From Aurantiochytrium sp. KH105 (Eukaryota; Sar; Bigyra; Thraustochytrida; Thraustochytriidae), in NCBI GenBank assembly GCA_003116975.1, contig BGKB01000047.1, positions 62,001 to 126,000 on the forward strand: 64,000 nt of DNA, read 5' to 3'. The number at the start of each line of letters is the position of its first letter. Position 1 is the stretch's first letter. Positions 38,113-63,296 of the stretch are shown here, in pieces. Below the pieces are notes generated by a model. The model made no database searches and was not told the origin of the DNA. It saw only the letters and a list, made by a program, of their open reading frames with translations. Both the position numbers and the translations under genes were made by a program.

Positions 38113-38196
38113 ATGGAGGCCGTCCGTGAGCCCAATGGCGGCGCACAAGAACCGCGACGGGGCAAGAACAACGCTACCACAACCTCGACCAGCAGT

Positions 38197-38231
<35 letters not shown>

Positions 38232-41200: not shown

Positions 41201-44200
41201 GTAAGGCCGCCAAGGAGGCCAAGGTCGAGAATGCACTCACGCGAATCGAACGCATGTGGTCCACTTCGCAGTTCCAAGAGGATGATGGACGTTTTGAGGC
41301 CGCCGATGCACCGCCTTACCTATCATTGGCTGAAGAGGAGCTCGCTACGCTCGATGCAGATCAAGCGGCGGTCGACGCCATGGCAAATTCGCCGCACGCG
41401 CTTCCCTTCATGGATCCTTACGCAACTGCCGAAGGCGTAAAAGGCAAAGGGGTCAAGTACTGGAAAAACATTCTTGCGAGCGCCGTCAAGATCGTAAATT
41501 CGCTCGCATCCATCCAGAGTTCTTGGGCGTATCTTGCAACCCTCTTCTTGCAGTCAGATGAGGTCAAAGAGGCTTTACCCAGTGACGCCAAACGCTTTGC
41601 TGCCCTTGACGAGGACGTTCGCAAGCTCTTAGAAGACGCCAGAAGCAACAAGCTCTTGCTCAGTTTTTGCGCCAAGCCTGGTCGTGCGGATAACATGGAA
41701 GAGGTTAACGAGCAACTTGCTCTATGTAAGACGAGTCTCGGGAACTTTATTGCTTCTAAACGGGCCTCCTTTCCACGTTTCTACTTTGCGGCAGAGTCTC
41801 AGGTGCTCGACATCTTGAGCAATGGATCCAAGCCGACTGAGGTCCTCAAACATCTTTCAGCAGTCTTTCCCGCAATTTCGACACTCCAGACCGAAGGCGT
41901 CTACGCCTCTCATTGGTTGTCCCTCGACAAGCAAGAGTGCGGAGCTTTTGACACACCTGTTGTGCTTAAAGGACAGGTCGAAACGTATTTGCGGGATATT
42001 GATGTTGCATGCCAACAAGCACTCGAAACCTCACTGTCAAAGAGCCTTACAAGGTACAAGACGCAGCAGCGGAGGGACTGGAGTGTGCACAAGAATGAAA
42101 AGGGTTTCGCCCCCGAGGTGCTGCAGATCGCCCTGCTTGTTTGCAGAATCAGCGTCACGCAGGACATTGAAGCAGCCTTTGCCGCCCTCAAATCTGGAAA
42201 TCGAGACGCCATGCGCGACTACTCGGCCAAATCGAGGCAGCAACTCGCTGACATGGCCAAGGCTGCGCGCCAGACAACCTCAACTCTCGCGCCTAGCGAC
42301 CTTATCCGTATTGCCTGCGTTCTGGCTCTCGATGTTCATACGCGGGATCTCGTCGACTCCTTTGTGCAGCGGCAGATCTCTTCATCTGCCTCGTTTGACT
42401 GGCAGCGTCAGCTCAAACAGCGACAAACGGGTGCAACGGAGATTTGTGGCGCCAACTTTACGTACGGATTCGAGTACGTTGGTCATTTTACTCGTATCTC
42501 CCCAACGCCAGCCTTCGACCAGGCGCTTCTTGTGACTGCACAGGCTTTGAGGCTTCAAATGGGTTGCGTCCTTCGAGGTCCAGCCGTATCTGGCAAAACG
42601 GAAGTCATTCGCGAGCTCGGTGCAACAATGGGAAGATATTGTCTCATTTTCAACTGCACGCCGCAGACGACTCTTCACACTCTCGCGTCCCTCTTTGCGG
42701 GACTCGCGGCAACCGGATCGTGGCTTTGCCTCGAGGAGTTTGACCGTTTGCCGCAAAGCGTCCTTGCCGCTTGCGTTGGCCGTGTAAAGCGACTCTTTGA
42801 TGCGCGTAGTCGTGGACAAACCTCCGTACTTGATGAGTCTTCCTTGGATTCAGTCTCGCATCATCGGCAACCAGAGCAACAAACACCAATGACGGTCGTA
42901 GAAATTCCGCTTCATGCCGACTTTGCTCTTTTTGCAACGCTCGGAAAATCGCAAGGTCGCACGTCTTTACCCGAAGGACTTGATACGTATCTTCGTCCTG
43001 TGACTACCAGCGTACCGGAACGAAGGCCAATTTGTGAGGCTCTGCTGTTCGCGGGAGGCTTCGAGCAGGCAACCCCGCTGAGCGCCAAAGTTTGTAACCT
43101 CTTTGCCTCGTGTCACGAGGTTTTACCTGAGCGTCCTTTTTATGACTGGAGTCTTCGCGCACTCCGCGCACTCGTCACTCGAGCCGGGCATATGCGTCGG
43201 GAGTGGACTCTTGATCCAACTACGCAAGACGACGAGACAAGTCTACTCTTGCGGGCGCTTTTGAACTTGCTTCAACCGATCATCGCGCCCGGTGACGTCC
43301 AGATTTTTAACGGTCTCGTGATAGATCTTTTCCCGCTTCCCACGTCTGCGCCAACGCATCTTCAAGCTTCGTCGTCTGAAGACGCAAACAATCAAGAGAG
43401 CGAGGAATACGAGACCTCGAGAGATGATGTCCAGACTCGGGCCGAAAAGTCTCAGCACGTCGACATGGGCAGCGAGACCGAGCTTGAAATCGCTGTCAAA
43501 GAAGCTTCTGCAGCACGTGAGCTGTGGCCAGATCAAGACTTTCTCTCGACGGTCGTCAACCTCGAAGAGCTTCTAAAAGTTCGTCAAGCGGTCTTTCTTG
43601 TTGGCGAGGCTGGTGCCGGCAAGTCCGAGTGTTGGCGTACGCTGCAGCGCTCTCGGCAACTGCTCAAGCGCAAAACAAGTACAAAGGTTCTTCTTCCACA
43701 AGCCCATTCGGCTGATTTCTTTTTCGGTCGCCTCTCGCACAGCAATGGAGACTGGGAAGACGGGCTACTCTGCAAAGCCACGCGTGAATGTGCCACTGCT
43801 CCGACACCCGAAGATGGCGGCCCAAAGGAGAATTGGATCGTGCTTGACGGAGAATTTTCTTCCATCTGGTTTGACTCTCTCAACACCTTGCTCGATGACA
43901 ACAAAACCCTTTCTCTTGCATCGGGGGAACGAGTTTCGCTTCCTTGGCACACGCGAGTTCTTTTTGAGCTGGGCACTCTTGAGCACACGAGTCCTTCTGC
44001 AGTCTCGCGAGCGGCAATTTTACACCTTTCGAGCGCCGCTGGATCACAATGGAGGGCACTTATCGCTTCATGGATTCAGCGAAAAGAGTGGGACGACCAC
44101 GCCAAAGAAGCTATTACTACCTTTTTCCACGACTACGTAGCTCTGGCCCTCGCAGAATACGACAAGAGGACTTTTCGCCCTCTTGTGCCTGTCCTACACA

Positions 44201-47200
44201 CAGAAATTGTCACAACGCTTCTGAAGATGCTGGATGCAGTCATTGGCGCGGACGAAGAGAGACTCGTGGGCACGGCGGAGAATCTGAAGGATGCAACCCA
44301 GGCGCTTGAGCCGGCATTCGTATTTTGCATGGTGTGGGCTCTTGGCGCACCACTAACTGAGGACGCTGGAGCAGACCAGCGCCGTGAGCTCTCTGGCTGG
44401 TGGAAAACGACGTTCAAAAACGTCAAATTTCCAGCGCGCGATACTGTTTTTGACTACTACCTCGATACGGCCACCGGCAAGTTCGAGCTATGGAAAAACT
44501 CGCCGCAATTCACTGCGGCTGCAGCAGCTGCTGCAGCGGACCCGATCAATGGCCCAAATGGACCTGACGCATCGAGCCTCCATGGTATTTTTGTTCCGAC
44601 GCCAGAGACCTCGAGCGCAATGTTTTGGCTTGAGCGCATGATTGCACTCGAGTACGGGTTTTTGCTGATCGGAGGTGCTGGTTCGGGCAAGACGCGGCTT
44701 GTTCGTACTGCGCTTCGCGACCTAGATCCCAATGAGCAGGTGTCCGCGTCTATCGCGCTGCAGTACAATAGCAGTGCTGCTAGTCTTCATCAAGCGTTGA
44801 TCGTGCACTTGGAAAAGAAAAATGCACTCGTCTGGGGACCCCCCGGCGACGACAAGCAGCTCGCCGTCTTTCTTGACGATTTGCATCTTCCTCAAAAAAC
44901 CACAGCGAGGGGAGAGCACCAGGTGCACGCAAGCCTTCGACAAGTCTTAGAGATGGGCCAAGCATACGATGGCGCGTCGCTCGGAACAAAGCAAATTCAG
45001 AACTGTCACTACGTCGGCAGCGCCACGTGCCGAAAAGGTCAACGTCCACTCTCCAAGCGCCTGCAAAGGCACTTTATGACCTTTGGCGTTGCGTTTCCTG
45101 GCATGTCGTCTCTGCAAGCGATCTTCGGACCAATTCTGCAATCACATTTGCGACATTTTGAAGATGGTGTTAAGGCGCTCGGCAACACCCTCGTGGAGGC
45201 AGTGGCCGGCCTGCACATGGACATTATGGTCAAACTTCGTCCTTCGGCGGCAGCTCCTCACTACGATTTCAATTTGCGACACATAACGCGTGTTTTTCAG
45301 GGCCTTCTCACTGCGCAGCCAGCAGACTTTAACGACGCGACCACTTTTGTCAAGCTCTGGTGCCACGAATCAGAGCGAGTCTATGCCGACGGTCTCGTGA
45401 GCAGCATCGATCTGATCAAGTTCCGCGACTTGCTCCTTGGCCAGGCTAGGCGCAAGTTTCCAGCAGCAAATATGACCAAACACTGCGGTGACGACCCTTC
45501 CGATCCACTCATTGTCTGCCACTTTGCGCCACAAGACGGACAAGTTGATGACGAACCTGTTTACAGGTTTGTCAACGCCTATGAAGATCTCGTGCCCGCG
45601 CTCGACGCTGCATTGGACGACCTCAATACCTTCAAGTTGCCACTTGACCTTGTCTTCTTCGACGAGGTCATTTCGCACGTTTGCCGCATTGCTCGCGTCT
45701 TACATGCTTCCCGTGGGCATTGCTTGCTCGTTGGTGCAGGAGGGTGCGGCAAATCGTCGCTTGCGCGGGTTGCCGCTCAGGTCTCGAATCTGTCGCTCTC
45801 TTTGCTCCCTGTGCGCGATGCATCAAGTGGGCAAGAGCTCAAAGAGGAGCTGCGCAATCTCTGTACAGCTGTGGGGGTCGGTGGAGAACGCCGTTGCGTG
45901 CTTGTACGCGATCGCGATGTAAGACAAGGAGGTCTAGGGCTTCTTGCGTACGCGTCGGACCTCGTGATGACAGGATCACGACTTGCAGAGCTTTTCTCCG
46001 AGGAAGAGCGCGAGTCAATCGCACAAAGCGTTGCGATCACCGCCAAGGCCGCAGGGTATAAACAAGACGTGGCGGGCAGCTTTGCCTACTTTGCTGAGAA
46101 AGTCCAAAAGGACCTGCACTGGATCTTCTCCTTTGATCCGATGGCCTGTGACCTCCAATCGTGGTTGCGCGCATTCCCAGCGCTGGCTCAGGGCACAGTG
46201 GTCAACTGGTTCCACCCTTGGCCAGAAAAAGCGCTTCGCAGCGTGGCCGTGATGCTGCTCGAAGACCTGGAACTCGAGTCTGACGAAGTTCGCCGCGGTG
46301 CAGAAACGTTTATGGTCTCTGCGTACACGAGCTCTCAAAAGCTTGCTCAGTCATTCGCTACATCCGCAGATATTACCACGGTACATCCGTTGCGTGCATT
46401 TGTGGACTGCCAACGCGCCTTTTGCGAGGATCTCCATTCTCGCCGCGCTGCGAATCGTCAAAAAAAGAGCCGCCTTGAAAACGTCGCGGAGCGAATGCAC
46501 GAGGCAGATCGTCTCGTGAACTCGCTCGAAGAGGCGATTCAGGCTCAGGAGGAAGATGCCGAAGAGAAAACCATGCTTGCAGAGGCACAGGCCGAAGAAG
46601 TTGCTCGCGATGCGGCCGTCGTTGCGGAAGAGAGCAAGCTGGTCGTGGTGGAGCAAGCCAAGGTAGACGAGATTGCTGCCGAAGCTCAGGCAATTAAAGA
46701 TGACGCGCAAGCTGAGTTCGACAAGGCCGAGCCACTGCTGAAAAAGGCCCTCGATGCACTTGATCTGCTCACCAAAAAGGACCTTGGCGAGTGCAAGGCC
46801 ATGGGCTCGCCGCCCAAAGGCGTTGATGACGTCTTTTGTGCCGTGCTCATTCTTTTGGCAGGCGTTGACCCTCGCATCAAGCTCAACAAGTCCGGCAAAC
46901 CCGAAGATCTATCGTGGGACGCGTGCAAGAAGGATCTCATGGGCAATATCAACGAGTTCCTCAATCAGCTCAAGTACTTTAAGGAGGCTGTCGAAGACTT
47001 TCGCGTTCCCAAGGTCAACTGGGCCAATGTTCGACCCATTCTTCAGCTTGACCACTTTCAACCAGAGACTGTGGAAAGGAAAAGTAAGGCAGCCGGGGCC
47101 TTAGCTTCCTGGGTCGAGAATATCGTCGTGTACTACGATACAATTCTCTGTGTAGAGCCAAAGCGACAGCTCTTGCAAGAGGTAGAAGGCCGTTTGGCGA

Positions 47201-50200
47201 AAGCGACATCTGTGCTCGACAGGGTAAAGGCAAAAGTAGGTGAACTCGAGATCCGTCTCGCCAAGCTCCGCGAGGATCTCGCAGAAGCAGAAACCCTCCG
47301 CGATGAAGCCGTGCAGCTCTTGCAGCTTAGCCAGCTCAAACTCGGTCTCGCGCAGCGCTTGACTACCGCGCTCTCGTCTGAGACAGACCGCTGGGCAGCC
47401 ACGATCGAGAAGCTTGACCAAGAATTCGAGGTTCTTTTGGGTGACGCCCTTTTGCGCGCCGTCTTCTTGGCGTATGCAGGTCCTTTCGACGCAAACTGCA
47501 GGAATTTTCTTGCGACAAAAGAGTGGCTTCCGTTTCTGGCCAAGGCAGCAGCCGGAGAAGCGATTCCTGTCAGCGAAAACTTTCTCCCTGCCAGCATTGT
47601 GTCGTCGCGTCACGAGAGAACCTCTTGGCAAGTCGAAGGGCTCCCCGCAGATCCGACGTCGTCGGAAAACGCCGCGCTGCTCATGGCATGCAATTCGAAG
47701 CGCTGGCCTCTTGTTTTGGACCCGCATTTGCATGCTTTGGCCTGGTTGCGAACGATGTGCAGCCATCGCAGCGAAAGCTGGATTACACTGCACGTCGATT
47801 CGCCCGAGCTAGTCAGCAAATTAGGTGTCGCTATTGCCGCCGGTCATACTGTCGTTCTTGAAGGCATCGAGCCGTCGTTGACCAACTGCACAGATCTGAT
47901 GTCTCTCATGCTGCGTCAAGCCAGTAAACGCGGTGCGCGCGACATTGTTACGATAGGGAACGCAGAAGTCGAGCTCCACGAAAAGTTCAGGCTGATTCTG
48001 CACACGAGCTGCTCGCGAGCTCGCTTTCCTGCTGATCTACTCACCGCCTGCTCGCTCATCAACTTTTCCACGTCGCAGGACGGCCTCGAGGATGAACTTC
48101 TCGAGCTTGTGGCGAGAAAGGAACATCCCGATCTTTCGTTTCAAATTGATCAGCTGACAAGTCTTCAGAGACGCCTCGTGGTGCAACGGGAAGATCTCGA
48201 GGACGCTATTCTCGTCTCGCTAGCAGACGCCGAAGGAGATGTCTGCGCGGACGAGCCGCTCATTGGAGAATTGGAAAAGTCAAAGACACGTCTTGACTCG
48301 ATCGCTGATCTAGCCGCCGCGACAACCGACAATACCAAGCTTCTCAAAGACTTTATCTCAAAGTATCGACCCGTAGCACGGAGGAGCGCACTTCTCTTTG
48401 GCATCATGTCCCAGATGCACAAACTTCACCCCAGCTATACGTACTCGCTCAATGTATTTGCGAGTATGCTTATTCGCGGTATCGCCTTGGTGACCAAGCC
48501 GCCGCCAACAAGCGACGAGGCTTCAGGCATGGCGGAACGTCTCCGCGCCAAAGTTCGTAATGTAGTTATCACGGAGCGATTTGCTTGGGACAAGAGCACC
48601 TTGCGAGATGAGACACTCAATGCTTTGGAGGGTTCTGACGCGAGTTCAGATGTCTCTTCAGGTGCTCTCGTGGGTGCTCAGGAAACTGTTGAGTCCATTT
48701 CAGCAATAAGCGATGCAGAGGTCGAAGAGCGGTGCAGCGTACTCAATCGCTCCATTACCAACATGGTCTTTACCTTCCTTCGTATTGGACTTCTTGATCG
48801 TCACGCGCTCACAGTCGCTTCTCACCTATGCTTTCAAGTTCTCCACGAGGAAGGCGAGCTCGAGAATGGGGAAGTCGACGCTTTGGTCACATGTCGCCCG
48901 GCGGCGAGCACGGGATCGATGGGCCCCTTGTCGACGTGGATGCCGGCAGATGTATGGGCTCGCATCAAAGGTCTTGAAAGCGTAGATGGTCTGCAGAGTA
49001 TTGGCGACGATATCATGTCTGACTCGGATGACTGGAAAGAATGGTATCTGTCAAGCGCGCCAGAGGAGAAACGCATTCCAGGGGAGCTTGGCGAGCTCAG
49101 TGAGCACAAGAGATTGTTGATTATTCTCGCGATTCGTCCTGACCGCCTTTGCGAGAAACTCGGGGGATTTGTGTCCTCGAACATGGGGCCTCTTTTCGTT
49201 GACCGCCAAGCGGCCTTTGATATGGATGGCGTCATGCAGGTCACTTCGGCGTCGACACCTATTATTGTACTTTCTTCCCGCACCGTGGACGCTGTTGCCT
49301 TGGTGGAAGCATTGGCGCTCCGTTCGGAGAAAGGGCTTGAGCAGCGCCCACCCTCGATGCGTCCTGCGACGCCTGCCAAACCTAAGGCAGGAAAGGACGA
49401 CCAAGACGAAGCAGACGGCGGCGACGGCAGTGAAGCCGCAACCTCTCGTCTTGTCATGATTTTCCTCGGCGGGGGCAAGGTTGCTTTTGATGCTGTTGAA
49501 GAGTCCATTCTGGCGTGCGCAGAAGCAGGACACTGGATCATGCTTCGTGACGCACATCTAGCAAAGGACTGGCTTCCCCGACTGGAAAATGTCTTGCGTG
49601 CCGCAGCAACTGCCGCGCACGACGAGTTTCGGTGCTTCATGTCTGCGCCTGCCGAGAGCTTTCATCGAGACGTGCCGCAGGTGCTCTTGCAGAGTGCTGT
49701 CAAGGTGGCATGGGATGCTGGGCCAGATTTCCGCACCAATCTTGAGGTGGCCTGGGCTAGTTTTCCTCAGTCGCGCATCGATGCCTGCACCAGCAATCGT
49801 TTCGAGTTTCAGCAAACGCTCTTCGCATTATCCGTATTCCACGCGATGATGCTTGGGCGACGCAAGTTTGGATCCCTCGGCTGGTCGAATTCGTGGGGTT
49901 TTACGGATAGCGATGCGCAGCTTGCGGCGGATGCAGCAGAGCGCTACGTCGCTGCTTCAGAAGTTCAGCCAGGAAGCATTGCATGGAGGGAACTACGATG
50001 TATCGTTGCAGATCTGCTATACGGCGGACGCATTGACGAATCGCGCGACCTCGAAATTGTGCGTGCCCAACTCGCCGCGCTTTGGCAAGCAAAGCTTGTG
50101 CGTGAAGACAAGAAAGCATTTGAGCTTACTCCGGGTTTTACAGCGCCTGAAGCAGGCCTTTCCCACAAGCAAGTTCAAACGATGCTGCGCAAAAAGCTCC

Positions 50201-51561
50201 CCAAAGATTGCCCTGAAATGTATGGGGTAAAGAGCTTTGTGGACAGCAAATTTTGGGTAATGCGGCAAAAGAGTCTTTGTGCAGGCCTTGCGCTGCTTGC
50301 AAGTGGCGCAAAGATCGAACAGGTTCCCGCCCCGGATGATCGCGCCGGCAAGTTGCGCGGTATCGTCAAGAGCCTGCTCGAGCGGCTGCCAAGCTCGTTT
50401 AATCTTGAAGAGGCAGAAGCTCTGGCAAAACCAGCGCTCGAAGACCCTAAAGCTGCCAATGCACCACTCGTGATGGTGGCGTTGCAAGAGGCCAAGCTTA
50501 TGAATGATTTGCTTGAGCGCGTGCGCTTGACACTTGACGAACTGCAACAGGCACTCGATGGGCTGCAAGACATGCGCCCTCCGCTAATCGAAGTCGGGGA
50601 CATGCTCTTGGCACAGCGGGTGCCCGGCGTGACCATGGATCAGAAGAGTACAGAGCTCTCTCACACCGGCAGTGGTGGCATTGGCGGTACGGGTACTGCA
50701 GAATCAGGTCCAATGGAAGTAACTGATTGTAATGAGGATGGCGAGAGATTTTCATGGGCAGGGATTTCGTGGCCTTCGACAAAGCCATTGGATGGCTGGT
50801 TCGATGATCTGGTGCAACACGCAGATCAACTTCGGCACTGGATGCAAGACTTTGCTATGCCCAAATCTTTTTGGCTGCCGGGATTTCTCCGACCACTCGG
50901 TCTACTCTCGGCTGTACGACAGCTTGCAGCGCGTAGGGACAACGTGGCGGTCGAGACACTTACTTTTGCGACCGAAGTGACGATGCATCGCGACACGAGC
51001 ACAATTGATGCCCCTCCTGATTGCGGCGGAGCAGGCATCTTTCTTCATGGCTTGAGCATGGAGGGTGCACGATATTACTTGGGCGATACCGTGGATGACG
51101 CTTTAGAGGAGGAGGAATTTTTTGACGATGAGGATGGCGATCGACGCGTAGAAGATGAAATGGATGATGACGACGAGGAGGAGGAGGACGAGGGAAATGA
51201 AGACAACGAAGGCAGCAGCAGGAATGGAAACGGGCCTCGGAAGGGCCATCGCTACACCATGGGTAAGACACGATGCGGAGGCTTTATCGTCCAGAGTGGC
51301 CTCCGGAACTCTGTTTTCCCAATGCCTGTCATTCTCCTGCGAACCGTTCCCATCGAGCCGACATGGGAGGTTGCGCCAGGCGGCTTTCTTCGAAGTGAAG
51401 ACGACTCTATCTACAGCTGTCCAGTGTACGCAACGTCGATGCGGAGTGATAGCGAGAATGACGCCTCAAATGGCCTCTTGTTTTTGGCAACACTTCGCAC
51501 ACGCGTTCCTTGCCAGCAATGGGTGCTCGCAAATCTATCTCTAGTCTTGCGCCCAATGTAG
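38113..51561 (+). CDS. Kelch-containing axonemal outer-arm dynein heavy chain (alpha type)
   Basis: 4482 residues in one uninterrupted exon from ATG 38113 (the frame is open to 37948 only through GTG). After an acidic, Ser/Asn-repeat head come six kelch units (~105-450, e.g. RSGHTFTVLGSNAFLFGG). An IPT/TIG domain (~463-560) and a filamin-type Ig domain (~573-683) follow. This head is known from Chlamydomonas outer-arm alpha heavy chain (about 4500 residues). The stem and linker lead to AAA+ P-loops GPAVSGKT (~1489), GEAGAGKS (~1831), GGAGSGKT (~2186) and GAGGCGKS (~2541). The stalk coiled coils are at ~2785-2893 and ~3016-3103, with the microtubule-binding tip between. AAA1 Walker B reads CLEEFDR instead of the usual CFDEFNR. 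A very acidic insert sits near 51105-51240. It drives flagellar beating. Confidence 0.94.
38191..38250. repeat. In-frame (AGC)n(AAC)n repeat
   Basis: About ten AGC units followed by nine AAC units encode a Ser tract then an Asn tract near the dynein N-terminus. It is likely variable in length. Confidence 0.85.
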
Positions 51562-51889: not shown

Positions 51890-54115
51890 TTAGGACTCCT
51901 CAAGAACAGGTACAGAGCCCTGTCGAATAGCCTTGTGAAAAAGAATGCGATTCAGTTCCTGTTTCATGAATGCATCCGTCGGGAGAGGCTTGGTCCAGAG
52001 AAGATCAATCGCAGTCTCGTCGTCGACGACGTCCCCCGAAATAAGGACAACGACGCAGTCCGTCGTTGCGCGCTCACGAACACGGTGCGTATAGGAGGAT
52101 TCCATGTCGTCGAGAATGATAATTTGAAAGGAACCGTTGTCGATGGTTTCCAAGGTTTTCTCAGAGGGGGTGGTAACCTGGATCTTTAAGTCTCGCCCGA
52201 GACGTTCAATTGCTCGTGAGATAATGGCACCGCTCGTGTGGTGTTTGGCCATGACAAGAATTTGAAGCGCGGCGGGCAATGGCAGGACGCTATTGAGAAG
52301 GGCCGCGACATCGCTGGGTTTCGCGGGGAGCGGCTTGAGTACAAATCGATCGGCGCCAGCCTCGAGATGCTCGGCAGACATGTCATTCGCAGAGCAACCG
52401 ATGATGGCGCCACGGAAACCGCTTTCCCGGAGAGTGCGAATCGTTTCCTCGCCCGTCATGGCAACGCGCATGGGATCGGGCATGTAATGGTCCATGATGA
52501 CGAGGTCGTATGGCGTAGATGCGGCCATGGAGAGCGCCTCAGGACCGCTCGAGGCTTCGTGCAGGTCCCAGCCACGCGCCACGCGAGCCAGAACACGTTT
52601 CGTCATGGCGCGCACCATTTTGTCATCGTCGACATGAAGTACCTTTGCTCGTGCCCGAAAAGGCTTAAGATTTGGGTTCTGAGCAGAGGCGGCCGCAGGA
52701 TCTGGCGATGCCTCTGGAAGCGGGAGCGAGATACGGAAGCGCGAACCAGGGCAACCCGGCACGCCAGAGTCATATTCGTCGGTATCAAGATGGAGGAGAC
52801 CACCCATTTTCTCGGCCAGAAGCTTGGCAAGGGCCAAACCAACACCAGTTCCTTGACGCATGGTGTCGAGCGTCTCTTGGTACTTTTGAAAAAGGTACTC
52901 ACGTTCCGCGGTCGATATGCCGGGCCCCGAATCTTCAACAAAAATGTGGACCCAGCGCTCGTGCTGCGCGTCACGTTCGGCGCGCACGCGCAAGAAGCCA
53001 GAGGTGACGAACCGCACTGCATTCTGCGCCACATTGTTCACAAGCTGAAGAAGCCGAAGCCGATCAGCTTGCACCCACAGGTCTTCGGAGCACACGACTT
53101 CGGCCTCGACGCCTTCGTTCACATTGCGCTTCAAGGCAGCGTGAACGGGCTCGAGTACATCCTTGCGCAATGACGTTGGCTCTGTGCGAAGTTCGAGCAA
53201 GCCGACGGAGAATCGGTTGAGGTCAAGCATGTTGCGCAGCATTTCATCAATGAAGCGCAAACTCACGTCCATGAGCTGGAGGTCATTGAGTATCCCGTTC
53301 AGAGGGCTCGTGAGGGGCGTCTGTTTTCGTAGACGTTGGTTTTCTTTGGCGACTGCAGCTTGCACAAAGACGACTGCCGAACAGCAAACAGAGAGCGGAT
53401 TTCGGATCTCATGCGCAATGAATTCATTGAGGGCGCGCTCCGCTGTCGTTGCTGCGAGGAGTGCGGTATAGCGTTCCATGATGGCAGCATTGACGCTCAT
53501 GGAGTCGCGATTCGCGCGATAGCGCACAATTGTTAGGTACAGAGCGGCGATGAGAACGAGACAGACCGCGAAGAGAACGCCGCCGGGAATATGGTTTGCG
53601 AATCCGAGACCGAGGCCGCCCGCGAGGCCGGCAACGACGAGGGTGCAAGCGACAGCGAGACGTTCACCGGTGAGCCAAAACCAGGAGCTTCGAGCCTTTG
53701 TTGCCTGCGAAGTCGTCTCTGCGTCTTTGTTGCACTCGCGGACGAGAAAGGCTGGTAGGTCGAGCTCAAAATCTCGGGTGCTCTCTTCGGCGGGAAGATT
53801 GCGAACGCTCTTCGAGAAGATACCCGAGGCACCCTCGTAGCCATCAAGGAGGACGCTTTGATAGCCGCTGCCGAGATCTCCGCCTTGCGTCCCGCTCTGT
53901 ATGGTTCGAGGGGTCACGGCGACGCTGCTGAGGTCGAGGCCCTCAAAGTTTGTCACGAGCTGAATCCCCTTTGGCGCCACCAACATCGGAGCCGCCAGCT
54001 GCGCTGCCGCGCTCGCCGCTGTGCCATCTTCGTCCCTGTTGTCGAGCTCGGAGTCCTCTCCGCCCGACGACAGCGTCTGCGCCGTGGCCTCGGAGACCTC
54101 CGTCCGCGAGCTCAT
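51890..54115 (-). CDS. Membrane hybrid histidine kinase with two receiver domains
   Basis: 741 residues from ATG 54115 (MSSRTEVSEA); the frame is open to 54202 but the added part looks like leader. Two adjacent membrane helices (LAVACTLVVAGLAGGLGLG and VLFAVCLVLIAALYLTIV, ~160-205) precede the kinase. The H box FIAHEIRNPL has His at residue 235. N box NNVAQNAVRF, G1 EDSGPGI and G2 GTGVGLALAK complete the ATPase domain. Receiver 1 is canonical: VLHVDDDK, phospho-acceptor Asp542 in VIMDHYMPD, and LKPLP. Receiver 2 keeps an Asp (IIILDDMES) and Lys (WTKPLP) but lacks the N-terminal acidic pair (ILVMAKHH), so it is probably degenerate. No input domain is recognised. It likely signals through a phosphorelay at a membrane. 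Confidence 0.9.
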   Translation of the reverse strand: MSSRTEVSEATAQTLSSGGEDSELDNRDEDGTAASAAAQLAAPMLVAPKGIQLVTNFEGLDLSSVAVTPRTIQSGTQGGDLGSGYQSVLLDGYEGASGIFSKSVRNLPAEESTRDFELDLPAFLVRECNKDAETTSQATKARSSWFWLTGERLAVACTLVVAGLAGGLGLGFANHIPGGVLFAVCLVLIAALYLTIVRYRANRDSMSVNAAIMERYTALLAATTAERALNEFIAHEIRNPLSVCCSAVVFVQAAVAKENQRLRKQTPLTSPLNGILNDLQLMDVSLRFIDEMLRNMLDLNRFSVGLLELRTEPTSLRKDVLEPVHAALKRNVNEGVEAEVVCSEDLWVQADRLRLLQLVNNVAQNAVRFVTSGFLRVRAERDAQHERWVHIFVEDSGPGISTAEREYLFQKYQETLDTMRQGTGVGLALAKLLAEKMGGLLHLDTDEYDSGVPGCPGSRFRISLPLPEASPDPAAASAQNPNLKPFRARAKVLHVDDDKMVRAMTKRVLARVARGWDLHEASSGPEALSMAASTPYDLVIMDHYMPDPMRVAMTGEETIRTLRESGFRGAIIGCSANDMSAEHLEAGADRFVLKPLPAKPSDVAALLNSVLPLPAALQILVMAKHHTSGAIISRAIERLGRDLKIQVTTPSEKTLETIDNGSFQIIILDDMESSYTHRVRERATTDCVVVLISGDVVDDETAIDLLWTKPLPTDAFMKQELNRILFHKAIRQGSVPVLEES

Positions 54116-54697
54116 GCTTGCTTCTCCTGGGTTTGCTGGCCAGCGGACGCCAGCGGAGGTATAGTATTCTTTAATTATTACCGACCAACGCTTATTACAC
54201 ACCGTCGCGGTCGCGGTCCTTTGCTACCCCTCGCGAGCTCCCTTTTCGCAAGCGAGCAAGTGTAAAGCAAGAAAGCAGGCACGCATCCATTCCGAGCCAG
54301 CAGGGGTCTGTCTACGCTCGGGAGGGCAAGGACGGCCGCATTGGATGATTGCAGCGCAGCGCAGCACTCACGAGCGATGCTGGTATGATGCACAATCTTG
54401 TGCGGACGAGCTGGGCGCAGGATGTGGAGAGATCTGTCCCGACCCACGAGCCCACACGTGCGGACAAAAGGCAAGGCGAAGGTCAAGGCTCGCTCGGCCG
54501 ACGTCCAGGAGACTGCTGGCTCGAGTGTATGAGACAAGACAGGCAGGCAGGGAGCCAGCCGAAAACATGCCGTACGCGCAGCATTTTGTCTGTCCAGGGT
54601 TAAAATCTGAATGCAAAGAAACAGAGGGAAGATTGGAGAGATTGGAATCTACGTGCACGTCACATCCTGGTCGTGTTTTGATTATTCTTTCCTTCTT
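54116..54697. other. Intergenic spacer
   Basis: About 0.6 kb between two minus-strand genes. It contains the promoter of the histidine kinase and the 3' end of the methyltransferase gene. No gene or RNA gene recognised. Confidence 0.45.
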
Positions 54698-55894
54698 CTA
54701 AGGGACCGAAACAGCGGCCTTATTCGAGACCTTTACGAAGCGGTAGTGCGCGACGAACCACTCGTTGCCCGGTCCATCGCGACCATTGTCATACTTGAAA
54801 AGCTCAGAGCAGGCCATGCAGAAAAGACGCCAGGCTTGGTATTTCTCCGAGGCTTTATCGCCATAGCCTTCCTTGAAGAACTTGATGAGGTCGCCCCGGT
54901 TCGCATCAAGGTTTTCCAGCCAGTGTTCAAGGGTGCGCGAGTAATGCACGCCATTAATTGCCCATCGGCGATCCACGCGAAGGTGATCATTGATGAAGAG
55001 AAAGAGATCGTACGAGGGCATTGTGCCGCCGGAGAAGAAGTTGTCCGACATCCAGCCGTCTTGAAAGTGATAGGGGACGTCGCGATGACAAAAGACGTGG
55101 ACCATGACCTTGCCATCATCCTTGAGCCATTTTGACATGTTTTTGAAGAGCATCCAGTAATTCTTGACGTGCTCGAGCATCTCAATACTGCAAATGCAGT
55201 CAAAGGATGCTTCGGGAAGATCGAGATCGTTGACGTCGCAGGTTCTGATTTCGACATTGGAGAGACCGCGTTCCTTGGCGCGTGCCATGATGAACTCGCG
55301 TTGAGAGTTCGAGTGTGAGACACCGATGACCTTGAGGTTGGGAAAGTGCTTTCCAATATACAGGCTGAGCGAGCCCCATCCGCAGCCCAGGTCCAGAACA
55401 TCGGCGCCGTCGGGGAGGGCGGCAAGTTCTGCGCGCTCGCAAAAGAGCGCGAGCGCGTGTTCCTCGGCCTCGGCGAGCGTCGTCTTTGCGTCCGGGTACT
55501 GGCAGCACGAGTACTTCATTTGAGGACCCATCTTTTTGATGAAAAAGTCGGCGGGGACCTCGTAGTGCTGCTCTGCGGACGCATCGGTTTGCTCGGCAAT
55601 ACCTCGGGTCTTGAGGTCTTGCACAAAGGCGTCAATGTAGTCTGCCTGCTGCTCCTGGTCTCCGTGGAAAGTGACGGTGTTGATGGTCGACGCCAGGAGC
55701 TTGCGCATGCCGAGGCGGACGACTCGATCCGGCATGTACCCCTTTTCGATCATGGGGAGGAGCGCCGGCTGCACGACATCGTTCACGAGTTTGTCCATGA
55801 CCGTCTGGTTCCCCTCGCCCTTTTCTCGCAGCGCTGCGGCCTTGCTCACGGACTTGCTCTCCTCGGCCATCGAGCCTTCTTCGTGCAGCGCCAT
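54698..55894 (-). CDS. Cyclopropane-fatty-acid-synthase-family SAM methyltransferase (coclaurine N-methyltransferase-like)
   Basis: 398 residues from ATG 55894; an in-frame ATG at 55870 (MAEESKSV) is an alternative start. The family features are EQHYEVPADFFIKKMG (substrate-entry motif) and KYSCCQYP. The SAM loop VLDLGCGWGSLSLYIGKHFP, GVSHSNSQREFI and the acidic catalytic motif CSIEMLEHVKNY follow. This layout matches the eukaryotic CNMT-like branch, whose members methylate amines or lipids. Bacterial CFA synthases, by contrast, methylenate double bonds in phospholipid acyl chains. Substrate cannot be assigned. It is divergent from the large fusion gene that holds a second CFA-type domain, with 2.1 kb between their starts, so shared control is possible. 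Confidence 0.85.
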   Translation of the reverse strand: MALHEEGSMAEESKSVSKAAALREKGEGNQTVMDKLVNDVVQPALLPMIEKGYMPDRVVRLGMRKLLASTINTVTFHGDQEQQADYIDAFVQDLKTRGIAEQTDASAEQHYEVPADFFIKKMGPQMKYSCCQYPDAKTTLAEAEEHALALFCERAELAALPDGADVLDLGCGWGSLSLYIGKHFPNLKVIGVSHSNSQREFIMARAKERGLSNVEIRTCDVNDLDLPEASFDCICSIEMLEHVKNYWMLFKNMSKWLKDDGKVMVHVFCHRDVPYHFQDGWMSDNFFSGGTMPSYDLFLFINDHLRVDRRWAINGVHYSRTLEHWLENLDANRGDLIKFFKEGYGDKASEKYQAWRLFCMACSELFKYDNGRDGPGNEWFVAHYRFVKVSNKAAVSVP

Positions 55895-58035: not shown

Positions 58036-61000
58036 ATGCAGACGCAGAACAGACCAGCATCGAGCGAGAAAAGGGGACAGACCATGACCCCGGAGCAGCA
58101 GGAGCAGAGGACACAGAATGTGGCCGTCGTGGGCTCCGGCATCGCAGGGCTCGCGAGCGCGCTCTGCCTGGCCCAGCAAGGATGCAAGGTGACTCTCTTT
58201 GAGCGCGAAGACCGCCTCGGCGGACACTCGCTCACGTTCCCCGGCGAAGGCGACAGGCCGCCCGTGGATCTCGGATTCCAGGTCATGAACAACACAACCT
58301 ATCCGTACCTGACAAGCCTCTTTGACTCGCTCGGCGTTGACACCGAGCCGTCCGACATGTCTTTCGCCTTTAGCGTGGACGACGGGCGCGTCGAGTGGAG
58401 CTCGGACGCGCTCTTTGCCCAGCCAGGCAACGCGCGCGACCCGGCATTCCTCTACATGCTGCGAGAGATCTTTCGCTTCGCGAACGCCACCGAGGTCCTT
58501 GATGAGAACAAAAAGGAAGAGTTCGACACGATGACCCTCGGCGAGTACCTTGATTTGCGCGGATACAGCGACCGTTTCCGCTCCGACTACATTCTGCCCA
58601 CCACTGCAGCCATATGGAGCGTGCCGAATGGCACAATGGAGCAGCACCCGGTCAAGCCTCTTGTTGCGTTCATGGCCAATCATCATCTCCTTGCCCCGCT
58701 TGGAGAACGCCCTCGATGGCGAGTCGTTGCCCAGCGCAGCGAAGCCTACGTCGACGCCATCGCCAAGGAACTCGAGCGCCTCGGTGCTTCGATCCAGCTC
58801 GAGGCCGCGGTCAAGGCCGTGCGTCTCAACAAGAACCATGAAAACGAAGCCAAAAGTGGCGGCTGCCGAATTATCTTTGAGCAAAAGGGCAAAGGGGATG
58901 CCGAGGCGGAGTTTGACCATGTCATCCTCGCCTCGCATTCCGATGTCAGCGCACGCATCCTCGGCGATGGCGACGCAGAGGCACCGTACACCGACCTCGT
59001 AAAGCGCGTTCGCTACCAGCCGAACCGGGTCATCCTGCACTCGGATGTCTCACAAATGCCCCGAGAGCGCGCGGCGTGGGCTTCCTGGAATGTCCTCGAC
59101 AAGCGCGCGAGTCCTGATGCAGAGGGATCTCGGCCTTCGCAGAACTCACGCGACATTTGCGTCACCTACTGGCTTAATCACCTGCAAAACCTGCCGGAGT
59201 CAGCACCGCTTTTGCTCTGCACACTCAACCCAATCTCCGAGCCCGACGCTGACAAGGTCATTTTCGAGACAACCTTGGACCATCCCGTCTTTGACACCGC
59301 GGCGATGGATGCTCAACGACAAATCAACAAGGCCCAGGCCCAAGCCGATGCGGGGTCTCGCTCCCTATGGTTTGCTGGCGCCTGGCTTGGCTCGGGCTTT
59401 CACGAAGACGGCATTCGCTCTGCCCTCGCCGTCTGCAAGGCGCTTGCCGGATCGGTCCCGCGCTGGGCCGTACAAGTTGGCGCACCGGAGCATCCGGGTC
59501 TGCAGCTCATTCGCGGCCCTAGCCCTCGCAAGTCTGTAAGCCAGCGACTTGGCCTTCAGGTCTTCCAGGCCGTTGCGTCGCGAGGCATCAAGCGTGGCCA
59601 TCTCGTCATGATGCTCCCGGACGGTAATGATCTCCATTTTGGACGTGAATCTGCTGCCGATGCCAAGAGCCGCGGCGAGCCCACCGTGCGAATGCGCATT
59701 CAGGATCTCGGGATGCTCGCCAAATGCGTCGCCGAGTCCGACATTGGCCTTGGCGAGGCCTACATGCATCGCATGTTCGACGTCGACGATCTGCCTTCGC
59801 TCTTCGATGTTCTCATCGTCAACAACCAAACGCTTCGCGAGACCCTTAACCCGCTTGGCCTTTCTGCAAACTCGGGTCTCGCCTCCTTTGCCGGGGCTGT
59901 CATGTACTGCATCGGCAACATCGTCGAGCACATCCGTCATCTTGGCAACGACAACACCGTCACTGGATCGCGCCGCAACATCGAGGCACACTACGACGCG
60001 GGAAACAGCATGTACAAGCTCTTTCTCGATGACACACTTACGTATTCGTGCGGCCTTCACAGACGCGAGTACGGCGCAGAAACTGCCGCGCCGGGCGAGG
60101 AGCTTCCGCTGTACGAAGCGCAGCTGGCCAAGCTCGACAGCATCATTCGCAAGGCTGACTTGAAGTCTTCGGACCATGTTCTCGAGATCGGTTGCGGTTG
60201 GGGGTCGTTCGCCATCCGCGCGGCGAGCACTGTCGGCTGCAGGGTTACCGGTATCACCATCTCCACCGAGCAACTCGCCGAGGCCCAGGCACGCGTTCGT
60301 GCCGCGGGACTCGAGGACAAGGTGAATCTCATGATTTTTGATTACCGCAAAATGGGTGTGCCGCAGCGGACCCGAGCGCATGCTGGCAAAAAGAACACGG
60401 GAGGCGAAATATTTTATGAGCAAGACCTGGCGCCCGGACACTTTGACAAGATCGTCTCCATTGAAATGCTCGAGGCAGTTGGTCATGACCACTTGCCCGA
60501 GTACTTTGAGACCGTTGATCGCATGCTCAAGCCCGGAGGCCGCGCTGTGATCCAGGTTATCTCCATCAAGGACGACCGCTACGAAGAGTATCGACGCACC
60601 TCGGATTTCATTCGGCGATACATTTTCCCTGGAGGCCACATGCCTTGCGAGGCTTCCATTCGCTGGGCATCCGAGGAAACCGACCTCCTCCTTGGCAACG
60701 TAGACGACATCGGACCAGACTACGCTGTTACGCTGCGCATGTGGCGCGAGAACTTTGTCAAGAATCGAGATGCCATCCTCGCTTTGGGCTACCCCGAGAC
60801 CTTTTTTCGTTGCTTCGAAATGTACTTTGCGTACTGCGAGGCAGGCTTTGCTCAAAAGTACATTCACAACTACCATCTCACCTTTACAAAGGATGAAAAG
60901 GCCAAGTCCGCAGTGCGGGCAGAGGAACGCGAGGCCGAGAGTGCTGCGCGGTACAACCGGACGGTCATTCCGGCTGTCTTGGCCATCATGGCACTGATTG

Positions 61001-63296
61001 CGAGCCTTTCGCTGACCCTCAACCCGATAATTCGCGAGGTCATGTCCATTCTGTGCAGTGCCCTGCTCTTCACCTCGCTCATTGGCGACTTTTTGCCACG
61101 CATCAACCCCGCCATGGACACAACCTCGCGCCGAGCCACACGTTTTGGAAAGCTCGTCGGGGTTCGTCTTGCGATTTCGCTCTCCATGTGTGTCATTGTG
61201 GCCGGCCTCATCGCCTTCCATGAGGTCCTGTACACAACACGACTTGCCGGTAGCGATGCCTACATGTCTTTTGATGCCGAAAACGTGAACAGCGAGATCG
61301 TCGCCGATGACACGGGCTTTGACAACAATCTCTCTGAAGGCCAAGCACCTGTCCTTCACTTTTGCAACTGGCAAAGCGCAGAGTCTTCTTGCCAGCGACC
61401 TGCAAACGCTGTCGCTGCTGCAGTGAGTACGAGAATCGCTGAAGCCACGGGGAAGCTCTATGTGCGAAGCCCGATGCATTTTGTGGTTGGCTGTCTGGCG
61501 TTTGCGTCCGTGTCTCGCTTTTTGCTCGAACGTAATTTGATGAACGCTCTGCACGCACTCGCATTGATGATGCTGAGTGTGCTTTCGCTTTCGTCGAATG
61601 CGAAAATGTCCACCTCGGCGCTCGGCCTCGCCATTGTTCATGGTGCCAGCGAGCTGCACGCCTCTATTAGCGCTGCGCGTACCTTGCTAGGACTCCGGGG
61701 CCTCATGTGGAATGATAGTCTTTACCGGCGTGCTTGGAGCATTGACATTTCCAGCATGCTGATCATCCGCTGGGTTCCCGTGCCGGTGCTTTTGTCTCGC
61801 GTCATTCTTCGTGCGCCGTGGCCTGTTTTGCTTGCCATCTGCATGATTGCCGTTCGAGAGACTTCGGTGCTCATCGACACACTTCTCGCGTTGAAGGAGG
61901 ATTACGAGAACCGCCTCAATGCAGCTGACCTGTTGGATCAGGCGCGCAACCGTGACGAGATCGTCAACGCCATGGTCGGTGAGAAAGCACGTCGCAACGA
62001 GGCTGCTGCTAATGCTGATGCTACTACTCCCGTGGCACTTCGTACGTGACGATTCGACCTCAATTGCGCACCTCGCGCCTCGTTACCGTGTCGCTCGATA
62101 GTTCGCCAAAGAAACTGCTTGGACAACTAACATCTTTGCTTCTTTTTACGCTTCTCTACATATGGCCTTCCTTCTTGTCTGCCCGTCCGTCATCTGCACG
62201 CTCTGATTTACCTTTCAACCCACTCGCAGGTTCTGGAATTTACCATGGAACACTCTATCACCAGCGCAACAAGGTTGAAGGCGCTTCCCCAGCTCGGCAC
62301 ACTTTCAAGTACAACGTTTGGATGGCCTTGGTGAATCTGGATGAGGTGAAACGAGGCGAAGCCTTCGACGACACGCAATTTATCAGCGCGAATCGTGCGA
62401 ATATCTTTTCATGGTACCGCAAGGATCACTTTGTAGGAACCCAAGGAGCTGCTCAGCCACTTGATGAGTGCGTGAGGGATCTCGTCAAGGAGCGGACCGG
62501 ACGCGCCGTTTCCGCCAATGGCTCTGTCCTCTTACTTACCAACATTCGTTGCTTTGGATTTTCTTTCAACCCCGTCTCCGTGTACTACTGTCTCAATGCC
62601 TCGGGGACGGCTCTAGAAGCCGCCGTGCTCGAAGTTTCCAACACGCCTTGGTTACAGAAGCGAATGTACGTCCTTCCCTTCTTCGACGACGACGACGACG
62701 ACGACTGCAAGCACAAAGACGACTTGAACGAAAAGAAACGTGTGTGGCGCTCCAAGTGGAAGAAGGACTTCCACGTGAGTCCCTTTTTCGACGTTTTCTT
62801 CAATTACGAGTGGGTTCTCAACCTTCCCCGGGAACACATCAACATCCGTGCCCTCAGCACCCGGCGAAATCCGGAGACAGACGGCGCAGACGAGGCTCCT
62901 GCGCGCAAAGACGAGCCGTGGACACAAGTGGTCGGCACGGCCCCAACTGATCTTTTGCAAGAGAGAATCGCCTCGGAGCAAGGCGACGAGGAGAGGGAGT
63001 CTCGTACATTTGTTGTCAACCTCAACCTGCAGCGAGCTTCGGCCAGCGAGCGATGGCGTCAGCTGCTTCACCAGCCGCTCATGACCTTTTCCATCGTCCT
63101 GTACATTCATGTGCACGCCTTTATTGTGATGGTTCGCAAGGGCTGCGCGCAAAAGTTGACGCCGCGGAACGCTCCGGGTCTTGGCCTCGGAGACGCCGCG
63201 CGACATTTACTAATCTTCATAATTGCAGGTCTCGCAGGCATCTGGCGCATTCTAACAGCCCCATTTGTCAAGACGCGGGCGCAAGCCCGGATCTAG
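58036..63296 (+). CDS. Fused FAD oxidoreductase - CFA synthase-like methyltransferase - membrane domain - DUF1365 protein
   Basis: Exons 58036-61978 and 62230-63296, joined in frame, give about 1669 residues. Residues ~28-475 are an FAD amine-oxidase-type enzyme (VAVVGSGIAGLAS, then LFEREDRLGGHSLTF; late FAGAWLGSGFHEDGIRSAL). Residues ~500-955 are a CFA-synthase-like domain (AHYDAGNSMYKLF ~650, VLEIGCGWGSFA ~714, SIEMLEAVGHDHLPEYFE ~808, GGHMPCEASI). Residues ~975-1290 hold about seven hydrophobic helices. A DUF1365 domain completes it (SGIYHGTLYH, CFGFSFNPVSVYYC, EVSNTPWL, KDFHVSPFFD), with a final hydrophobic segment. DUF1365, this FAD family and CFA synthase are operon partners in many bacteria and linked to unusual membrane fatty acids. 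The FAD-CFA order also occurs in plant cyclopropane synthases. Product is unknown. Without splicing, a 1337-residue form ends at 62049. Confidence 0.85.
61979..62229 (+). other. Frame-linking intron of the fused lipid enzyme gene
   Basis: Donor G|GTGAGA and acceptor CACTCGCAG|GT, preceded by a long pyrimidine-rich tract (about 62130-62220). Removal joins GTC G to GT TCT, giving MVG|SGIYHG, and keeps the frame across the stop at 62047-62049. The DUF1365 frame has no ATG between its opening and the domain, so it must be reached by splicing from upstream. Confidence 0.78.
62690..62707. repeat. In-frame (GAC)n repeat
   Basis: A run of GAC codons gives a poly-Asp tract inside the DUF1365 domain, between the EVSNTPWL and KDFHVSPF motifs. 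It is probably a surface-loop insertion. Confidence 0.7.

What the first reader, a model, noticed from the sequence alone, without database searches (positions are those of the whole stretch)
58036..63296. Three bacterial-operon enzymes fused into one polypeptide through an intron
The first frame (FAD oxidoreductase, CFA-like methyltransferase, membrane domain) stops at 62049. The DUF1365 frame overlaps it by four bases and has no ATG before its domain. A GTGAGA donor at 61979 and a CGCAG acceptor at 62229 join the two in frame, producing MVGSGIYHG exactly at the start of the DUF1365 fold. From established knowledge, this FAD family (COG2907), DUF1365 (COG3496) and CFA synthase (COG2230) are operon neighbours in many proteobacteria. 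Plants carry an FAD-CFA fusion making cyclopropane fatty acids. A single chain adding both DUF1365 and a membrane domain would be a condensed pathway for an unusual membrane lipid (cyclopropane, methyl-branched or furan precursor).
Basis: partly seen in the sequence, partly recalled or inferred. Interest (0 to 1): 0.88.

Follow-up and report, generated by a model that had tools for sequence, protein, structure and literature searches.

The report
One-chain furan fatty acid synthase
A marine protist closely related to Hondaea appears to carry, in a single spliced protein, the three enzymes that bacteria use separately to build furan fatty acids, with the gene for the fourth step next door; this gives a concrete candidate for who makes these antioxidant lipids in the sea.

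Summary
The fusion is very probably real. A thraustochytrid closest to Hondaea encodes an FAD oxidoreductase, a CFA-like methyltransferase and a membrane domain in exon 1, and DUF1365 in exon 2. Both exons are under strong constraint (dN/dS about 0.09 between the genome's two copies), DUF1365 has no upstream ATG in either copy, and a transcript-derived relative (P0008) encodes the whole fusion. The donor is probably 62042 rather than 61979, and the start 58084 (1674 aa). The domains match the characterised bacterial furan fatty acid enzymes UfaD, UfaM and UfaO; a divergent neighbour (54698-55894, minus strand) groups with FufM, the fourth enzyme. The methyltransferase carries Gln where the four cyclopropane synthases compared carry His, as do the 26 other UfaM-type sequences compared, and scores below cyclopropane-synthase cut-offs. 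Two dinoflagellate-type proteins join the same enzymes, plus FufM and a desaturase, in another order, so DUF1365 was probably fused twice. Most likely this is a single-chain furan fatty acid synthase. No RNA or lipid data were available; splicing and product are inferred. None of the seven papers opened describes it.

The parts
58084..62041 (+). Exon 1 of the fusion gene, conserved ATG to favoured donor (ATG 58036 is in frame but not conserved)
   Evidence: dN 0.009 and dS 0.10 against the second copy (measured to donor 61979)
58114..59469 (+). UfaD-type FAD oxidoreductase domain
   Evidence: Pfam Amino_oxidase and NAD_binding_8; 38.7% over 465 aa to the ufaD-position gene of R. palustris; 30-40% to the FAD genes of 6 of 6 plasmid operons that have one
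59653..60909 (+). UfaM-type SAM-dependent acyl methyltransferase domain
   Evidence: CMAS 5.9e-72; 34.8% over 437 aa to the ufaM-position gene; Gln at E. coli His266; tree
60943..61935 (+). Multi-pass membrane domain without a Pfam name
   Evidence: hydropathy peaks at residues 977-1280 of P0001; no Pfam family at E up to 1; hhalign 74% probability to the C-terminal membrane region of algal FAD-CFA fusions; PF03798 (TLC) is called there in algal P0037
61979..62041 (+). Probable linker before DUF1365 (intronic if donor 61979 is used)
   Evidence: 6-nt indel that keeps the frame and 3 substitutions, all amino-acid changing, between copies; linker length matches P0008 and P0009
62042..62229 (+). 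Intron, phase 1, GTACGT...CGCAG (alternative 61979-62229)
   Evidence: donor and acceptor conserved in copy C33, with a 1-nt length difference; positions 62050-62229 have 13 mismatches in 180 against 37 in 1064 in exon 2
62230..63296 (+). Exon 2, including the stop codon
   Evidence: dN 0.011, dS 0.12
62238..63146 (+). DUF1365 (UfaO-type) domain
   Evidence: PF07103 1.1e-51; shares the 8 columns invariant over the 83 sequences aligned; AlphaFold2 mean pLDDT 89.7
63186..63290 (+). C-terminal helix, probable membrane anchor
   Evidence: helix 328-362 of P0002; hydropathy peak 328-346
54698..55894 (-). FufM-type methyltransferase gene (398 aa, P0190), divergent neighbour, about 2.2 kb from the fusion start
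   Evidence: 42% over 347 aa to the Rhodopseudomonas FufM-type gene and 27% to UfaM; FufM-type clade 100/100

Best explanation
The locus encodes a single-chain, membrane-bound furan fatty acid synthase, UfaD-UfaM-membrane domain-UfaO, spliced across one intron, with a divergently transcribed FufM gene for the last step. By analogy with the bacterial pathway, the UfaM domain transfers a methyl from SAM to an unsaturated acyl chain on a membrane lipid and leaves a methyl-branched trans-alkene. The UfaD domain (FAD) desaturates this to a methylated conjugated diene. The UfaO (DUF1365) domain inserts an oxygen atom from O2 and closes the furan ring. The neighbouring FufM-type enzyme then adds a second methyl. 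The membrane domain and C-terminal helix would hold the sites at the ER or lipid-droplet surface and shorten the path of the intermediates. Shown here: gene structure in both copies, purifying selection on both exons, homology to each enzyme, the Gln/His difference, the neighbour, and fusions in another order elsewhere. Shown by others in bacteria: the four reactions (PMC7380195). Inferred: that the gene is spliced as drawn, that this protein performs those reactions, the substrate chain, the location, and any channelling.
For: Fusion: both exons dN/dS about 0.09; splice sites conserved while the frame relation is not; P0008, named by its source as a complete MMETSP transcript ORF (1586 aa), carries all three families at 98% query coverage; in two relatives an exon-1 ORF and a DUF1365 ORF list the same longest-contig length, 301552 and 29142 (P0005/P0070 and P0007/P0072). 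Pathway: in R. palustris XCP the matches are the contiguous ufaD-ufaO-ufaM-position genes (38.7%, 30.6%, 34.8%) and a separate FufM-type gene (42%). In 7 of 7 Rhodopseudomonas genomes the M-domain's best match lies beside the one DUF1365 gene found. FufM-type partners at 43-46% occur in 6 of 7. Gln stands at the cyclopropane-synthase His in 27 of 27 UfaM-type rows (window included), and His is kept in 4 of 4 CFA rows. CFA equivalog cut-offs are not reached by this protein or by R. palustris UfaM, while the second R. palustris CFA passes one (671 over 600). Tree: UfaM-type 93/94, FufM-type 100/100. Dinoflagellate-type P0064 joins cytochrome b5, desaturase, DUF1365, FAD, CFA and FufM-type domains; its DUF1365 lies outside the thraustochytrid clade.
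Against: There is no RNA or lipid evidence. A second search aimed at the DUF1365 part of long proteins returned only P0003, not P0008. Some DUF1365 ORFs in the same clade (P0076, P0077, P0080) begin with Met just before the domain and could be separate genes. The UfaO match is modest (30.6% over 216 aa). The UfaM-type group has 93/94 support, short of the 95/80 mark. One Rhodopseudomonas (G005) lacks a FufM-type partner, and two of the six partners are listed with a TGA inside the match. At the Cys139 position the window keeps the Cys of the CFA rows, while most UfaM-type rows do not. The Gln is also present in the genome's own sphingolipid-C9-methyltransferase-like protein, so it marks a class, not one product. 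Plant cyclopropane synthases could not be fetched to test the Gln rule. No paper opened links thraustochytrids to furan fatty acid synthesis.
Confidence: 0.72

Rival explanations
1. The protein is a fused acyl-lipid methylase and oxidoreductase whose end product is a methyl-branched, methylene or dienoic acid; DUF1365 has another role and no furan is made.
For: UfaM and UfaD alone give a methylated diene in bacteria (PMC7380195, section 3); the UfaO match is the weakest of the three; relative P0066 carries the name tuberculostearic acid methyltransferase UfaA1.
Against: DUF1365 is retained under strong constraint, was probably fused in two lineages, and stands with a FufM-type gene whose known substrate is a furan acid (PMC7380195).
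Confidence: 0.14
2. Two proteins are made: exon 1 as a UfaD-UfaM protein ending at 62049, and DUF1365 as its own product.
For: Both frames end in their own stop codons; Arabidopsis and Chlamydomonas keep DUF1365 as a separate gene (PMC10940516, PMC4067076, passages).
Against: No in-frame ATG before the domain in either copy; the first one would drop the strand carrying near-invariant His19 and Arg21; P0008 is fused at transcript level; intron length is not frame-conserved while splice sites are.
Confidence: 0.08
3. It is a plant-type cyclopropane fatty acid synthase with an appended DUF1365.
For: The FAD-CFA order matches plant CPA synthases (recalled); CMAS family match; Cys kept at the Cys139 position.
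Against: It has Gln where 4 of 4 CFA rows keep His, falls below the CFA equivalog cut-offs, and groups with UfaM-type proteins.
Confidence: 0.04
4. It is a sphingolipid C9-methyltransferase, as the Hondaea protein is named at NCBI.
For: The name given to P0003.
Against: The genome has a separate 476-aa CMAS protein that looks like one, far away in the tree; FAD and DUF1365 domains are unexplained by this name.
Confidence: 0.02

Closest known systems
UfaD-UfaO-UfaM and FufM of Rhodopseudomonas palustris / Rhodobacter sphaeroides (furan fatty acid pathway, PMC7380195)
   Same: All four functions present; each domain matches the corresponding R. palustris gene
   Different: One spliced polypeptide with a membrane domain, order D-M-membrane-O, with FufM as a divergent neighbour; separate genes in bacteria
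Arabidopsis AT3G23510 (UFAMD1), AT1G30130 (UFAO1) and AT4G33110 (FUFM1/LIME1), PMC10940516 (passages)
   Same: A CFA/FAD protein, a DUF1365 protein and a FufM homologue in a eukaryote, placed on lipid droplets
   Different: Three separate genes there; function unproven there too; not compared by sequence here
Dinoflagellate-type mega-fusions P0064 (Polarella glacialis, 2154 aa) and P0059
   Same: Same UfaD, UfaM and UfaO domains in one chain
   Different: DUF1365 comes before FAD and CFA; also cytochrome b5 (P0064), desaturase and FufM-type domains; DUF1365 outside the thraustochytrid clade
Plant-type cyclopropane fatty acid synthases (FAD-CFA fusions; recalled)
   Same: N-terminal FAD and C-terminal CFA domains
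   Different: Not compared by sequence here; no DUF1365; product differs
crtIBY trifunctional carotenoid fusion of thraustochytrids (PMC10016063, passages)
   Same: A bacterial-type pathway fused into one thraustochytrid protein
   Different: Different pathway

Membership tests
UfaO / DUF1365 family | PF07103 match above the gathering score | tested here: met
   176.1 bits against 25
UfaO / DUF1365 family | Conserved residues of the family (FNPVS, NT, KxFHVSPF and others) | tested here: met
   the window protein shares the 8 columns invariant over 83 aligned sequences, itself included
UfaO / DUF1365 family | O2-dependent furan formation from a methylated diene | not testable with these tools
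   needs an assay
UfaM-type methyltransferases | Closer to UfaM than to cyclopropane synthases of the same genome | tested here: met
   247 against 159 bits in R. palustris XCP; 7 of 7 genomes place the best match beside DUF1365; tree 93/94
UfaM-type methyltransferases | Gln at the E. coli His266 position (marker found here) | tested here: met
   27 of 27 UfaM-type rows against 0 of 4 CFA rows
Cyclopropane fatty acid synthase (NCBIfam equivalogs) | Score above the curated cut-off | tested here: not met
   235.3 of 600 and 212.7 of 400; controls: L151 671 of 600, UfaM 242.8 of 600 and 287.5 of 400
UfaD-type FAD desaturase | FAD dinucleotide fold and homology to the gene next to ufaO | tested here: met
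UfaD-type FAD desaturase | Desaturation of the methylated acyl chain | not testable with these tools
   needs an assay
FufM (neighbour P0190) | Closest to the Rhodopseudomonas FufM-type gene and distinct from UfaM | tested here: met
   42% (262 bits) against 27% (94 bits); clade 100/100. That L150 is the RPA0924 orthologue is by elimination among the three homologous methyltransferases found in that genome
TLC (PF03798) membrane domain | Pfam match of the window's membrane domain | tested here: not met
   no family at E up to 1; only a 74% profile match to algal C-terminal regions
Nitrobindin-like haem barrel (DUF1365 fold) | Clear structural match | tested here: inconclusive
   [not shown]

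The most novel reading that the evidence does not exclude
Labyrinthulomycetes and, independently, dinoflagellates each condensed the bacterial furan fatty acid operon into one membrane-bound polypeptide. These single-chain synthases are a eukaryotic primary source of the furan fatty acids in marine food webs and protect DHA-rich lipids from photo-oxidation. A His-to-Gln change in the bicarbonate site turns a cyclopropane synthase into the methylase that starts the pathway.
Probability: 0.4. Interest if true: 0.85.

Novelty: new variant of a known kind. Interest (0 to 1): 0.74.

Why it matters
Furan fatty acids are radical-scavenging lipids of fish, algae and plants, and the papers opened here demonstrate no eukaryotic furan fatty acid synthase. 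A one-gene candidate from a DHA-producing group in which gene knockout works makes the origin of marine furan fatty acids directly testable. If active, it would give a single-gene route to these lipids. It also gives a testable residue (Gln824) for why one CFA-fold enzyme methylates and another makes a cyclopropane ring, and it puts a likely function on a mislabelled NCBI protein.

Tried and rejected
Not settled without cDNA; both donors are conserved in C33, and the Hondaea model uses the MVG junction.

Read-through or frameshift between the frames: rejected, because the frame relation differs between the two copies.

Cyclopropane synthase: disfavoured.

Naming the membrane domain: no Pfam hit at E up to 1, only a weak profile match to algal regions. 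A structure prediction for it was never accepted.

DUF1365 in solved structures: none by sequence; one chance hit at E 1.8.

One search, meant to list long DUF1365 fusions, found only P0003. I do not read it as absence, since one search lists five of 67 proteins with PF07103 (P0003, P0008, P0009, P0059, P0064).

Literature searched for a prior description: nine searches. I opened seven papers: PMC7380195 (abstract, outline, first part of section 3, sections 8 and 9, passages) and PMC10940516, PMC4067076, PMC12712439, PMC7922858, PMC9230497, PMC10016063 (passages only). None of what I saw describes a DUF1365 fusion. All other papers were seen only as listings.
Full report
What the window is. 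The window lies in G000:C47:62001-126000, an assembly of 76.0 Mb in 367 contigs. The closest named relative at this locus is Hondaea fermentalgiana, a thraustochytrid (P0003, 98% identity over 78% of the query). The DUF1365 search finds the locus twice in the assembly, on C47 (window) and C33. About 11 kb from 53.2 kb to the window's end aligns collinearly to C33 at 93.5%, and several other families list matches in pairs of near-equal score, so I treat C33 as the other haplotype.

Checking the observation. The two frames, their stops and the four-base overlap are as described. In the stretch scanned, 16 GT/GC-AG joins keep the frame open; 4 use the acceptor at 62229, and two of those have a donor near consensus: GTGAGAAA at 61979 and GTACGTGA at 62042. 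Both donors and the acceptor are conserved in C33. C33 is longer by 6 nt before 62042 and by 1 nt after it, so intron lengths are 251/258 or 188/189. No frameshift or read-through could therefore give the same protein from both copies, while splicing does. DUF1365 has no in-frame ATG upstream in either copy, and the first ATG is 30 codons inside the domain, beyond near-invariant His19 and Arg21. Between copies, exon 1 has dN 0.009 and dS 0.101, exon 2 dN 0.011 and dS 0.123, with changes mostly at third positions (92 of 115 and 27 of 37). Positions 62050-62229 differ at 13 of 180 bases against 37 of 1064 in exon 2.

Which donor. Relatives argue for 62042. With it, 23 residues separate the conserved NAM from SGIYHG; the equivalent stretch is 20 in P0008 and 23 in P0009; with 61979 it is 2. 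P0004, 72% identical, ends its exon-1 protein in ART, as the window frame ends in LRT before its stop, the reading of C|GTACGTGA. P0005 ends SSSK, which A|GTAAGTAA would give (the DNA of these relatives was not seen). The 63 bases between the donors do not decide: between copies they carry one frame-keeping 6-nt indel and three amino-acid changes, no silent one. The Hondaea model P0003 uses the MVG junction but resumes at TALEAA, missing about 124 residues of DUF1365. C33 has an AG exactly there (TCAGGG) and the window does not (TCGGGG), so that model probably rests on a false acceptor. The start is also corrected: C33 lacks the first ATG, and both C33 and P0003 start at the Met equal to window 58084.

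Conservation of the fusion. Of 67 proteins found with the joined query, five carry PF07103 with the FAD and CFA families: P0003, P0008, P0009, P0059 and P0064. P0008 is named by its source as a complete ORF of an MMETSP transcript, 1586 aa, 44% identical over 98% of the query, with FAD, CMAS and DUF1365 in the same order. Two further relatives show the exons as separate ORFs apparently on one contig: P0005 and P0070 both list a longest contig of 301552 bases, P0007 and P0072 both 29142. In the DUF1365 tree (44 rows) the window and P0008 fall in a 10-row clade (99/97). Outside it, proteins such as P0083 and P0085 begin with Met just before the domain and look separate. Inside it, P0076, P0077 and P0080 also begin with Met near the domain, which leaves their state open. 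A search aimed only at the DUF1365 part of long proteins returned P0003 alone.

What the domains are. DUF1365 is the domain of UfaO, which turns a methylated conjugated diene into a furan fatty acid using O2 (PMC7380195; abstract, first part of section 3, sections 8 and 9, passages). That paper shows that UfaM, UfaD and UfaO (RPA2569, RPA2571, RPA2570 in R. palustris) suffice for the monomethyl furan acid, and FufM (RPA0924) adds a second methyl. I therefore took the 7 of 80 loci titled Rhodopseudomonas from a search with a reaction-centre gene and searched their genomes. DUF1365 is found once in 7 of 7, and the window's methyltransferase domain has its best match beside it in 7 of 7. In R. 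palustris XCP the three genes are contiguous in the order ufaD-ufaO-ufaM, and the window domains match them at 38.7% over 465, 30.6% over 216 and 34.8% over 437 residues. A second CFA gene (L151) scores 159 bits against 247 for UfaM.

The neighbour. A 398-aa methyltransferase, P0190 (54698-55894, minus strand), lies divergently about 2.2 kb away, and the same on C33. It matches the C-terminal domain of dinoflagellate-type P0064 at 48% (49% for the C33 copy) and the FufM-type genes of three bacterial operons at 39-45%. In 6 of 7 Rhodopseudomonas genomes it has a 43-46% partner, two of the six listed with a TGA inside the match; G005 has none. It groups with them at 100/100. That the R. palustris partner is RPA0924 is by elimination: the three methyltransferases found in that genome are one beside DUF1365, one passing a CFA cut-off, and this one.

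Methylase rather than cyclopropane synthase. At the position of E. coli Cfa His266, a bicarbonate ligand (recalled), the window domain has Gln. So do 27 of 27 UfaM-type rows, the window included: three Rhodopseudomonas, six plasmid operons, two dinoflagellate-type and fifteen other eukaryotic proteins that I picked from the 67. Four of four CFA rows have His, and eight of eight FufM-type rows have His with Phe two residues on. At Cys139 the picture is mixed: the window keeps Cys as the CFA rows do, while most UfaM-type rows have Ser or Ala. The genome's own 476-aa CMAS protein, which I take to be a sphingolipid C9-methyltransferase (recalled features), also has Gln. The window protein stays below the CFA equivalog cut-offs (235 of 600, 213 of 400), as does R. 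palustris UfaM (243 of 600, 288 of 400), while L151 passes one (671 of 600) and not the other (296 of 400). I infer that losing the His leaves the methyl cation to lose a proton from a neighbouring carbon instead of closing a ring.

Operon context in bacteria. Among 98 plasmid records with DUF1365 I opened seven regions, chosen by hand and partly for FufM hits. FAD-DUF1365-CFA are adjacent in 6 of 7; the Shinella region has DUF1365 and a FufM-type gene but not the other two beside them. A FufM-type gene was identified in 3 of 7 (the other four were not searched for one), and a sigma/anti-sigma pair is near in 4 of 7. In Acinetobacter schindleri the order is desaturase, FAD, DUF1365, CFA, DUF1295, FufM-type. 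Polarella P0064 joins cytochrome b5, desaturase, DUF1365, FAD, CFA and FufM-type in one predicted chain. Its DUF1365 falls outside the thraustochytrid clade and the order differs, so DUF1365 was probably fused twice; one old fusion followed by splits is not excluded. In Chlamydomonas two CFA-named genes and a DUF1365 gene need SAK1 for induction by singlet oxygen (PMC4067076, passages). In Arabidopsis the homologous separate proteins were placed on lipid droplets and proposed for furan acid synthesis (PMC10940516, PMC12712439, passages).

Novelty. Nine literature searches and seven opened papers turned up no description of a DUF1365 fusion or of a thraustochytrid furan fatty acid synthase; the other listed papers were seen as listings only, and most subscription-journal papers are missing from the library. 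The enzymes are known; the single-chain arrangement, the neighbour and the differently ordered dinoflagellate-type fusion are the new parts.

Noticed in passing
P0064 (Polarella glacialis, 2154 aa) and P0059 (metagenome, 1825 aa): Predicted dinoflagellate-type chains joining desaturase, DUF1365, FAD, CFA and FufM-type domains (plus cytochrome b5 in P0064), possibly a complete dimethyl furan fatty acid pathway in one protein.
   Followed up: partly
P0003 (Hondaea, NCBI): Named Sphingolipid C9-methyltransferase and missing about 124 residues of DUF1365, probably through a false acceptor whose AG exists on C33 but not in the window.
   Followed up: yes
G000:C152:46124-46906 and C40:25734-26516: A separate 476-aa CMAS protein that looks like a sphingolipid C9-methyltransferase also carries Gln at the E. 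coli His266 position.
   Followed up: partly
window 22651-23970 (+): A fatty acid desaturase ORF (PF00487) about 34 kb from the fusion; no link tested.
   Followed up: no
window 51890-54202 (-): An ORF with a histidine-kinase-type ATPase domain followed by a response-regulator receiver, next to the FufM-type gene.
   Followed up: no
window 37948-51561 (+): An uninterrupted 4537-aa ORF: kelch repeats, a filamin repeat and a dynein heavy chain.
   Followed up: no
[not shown]
   Followed up: partly
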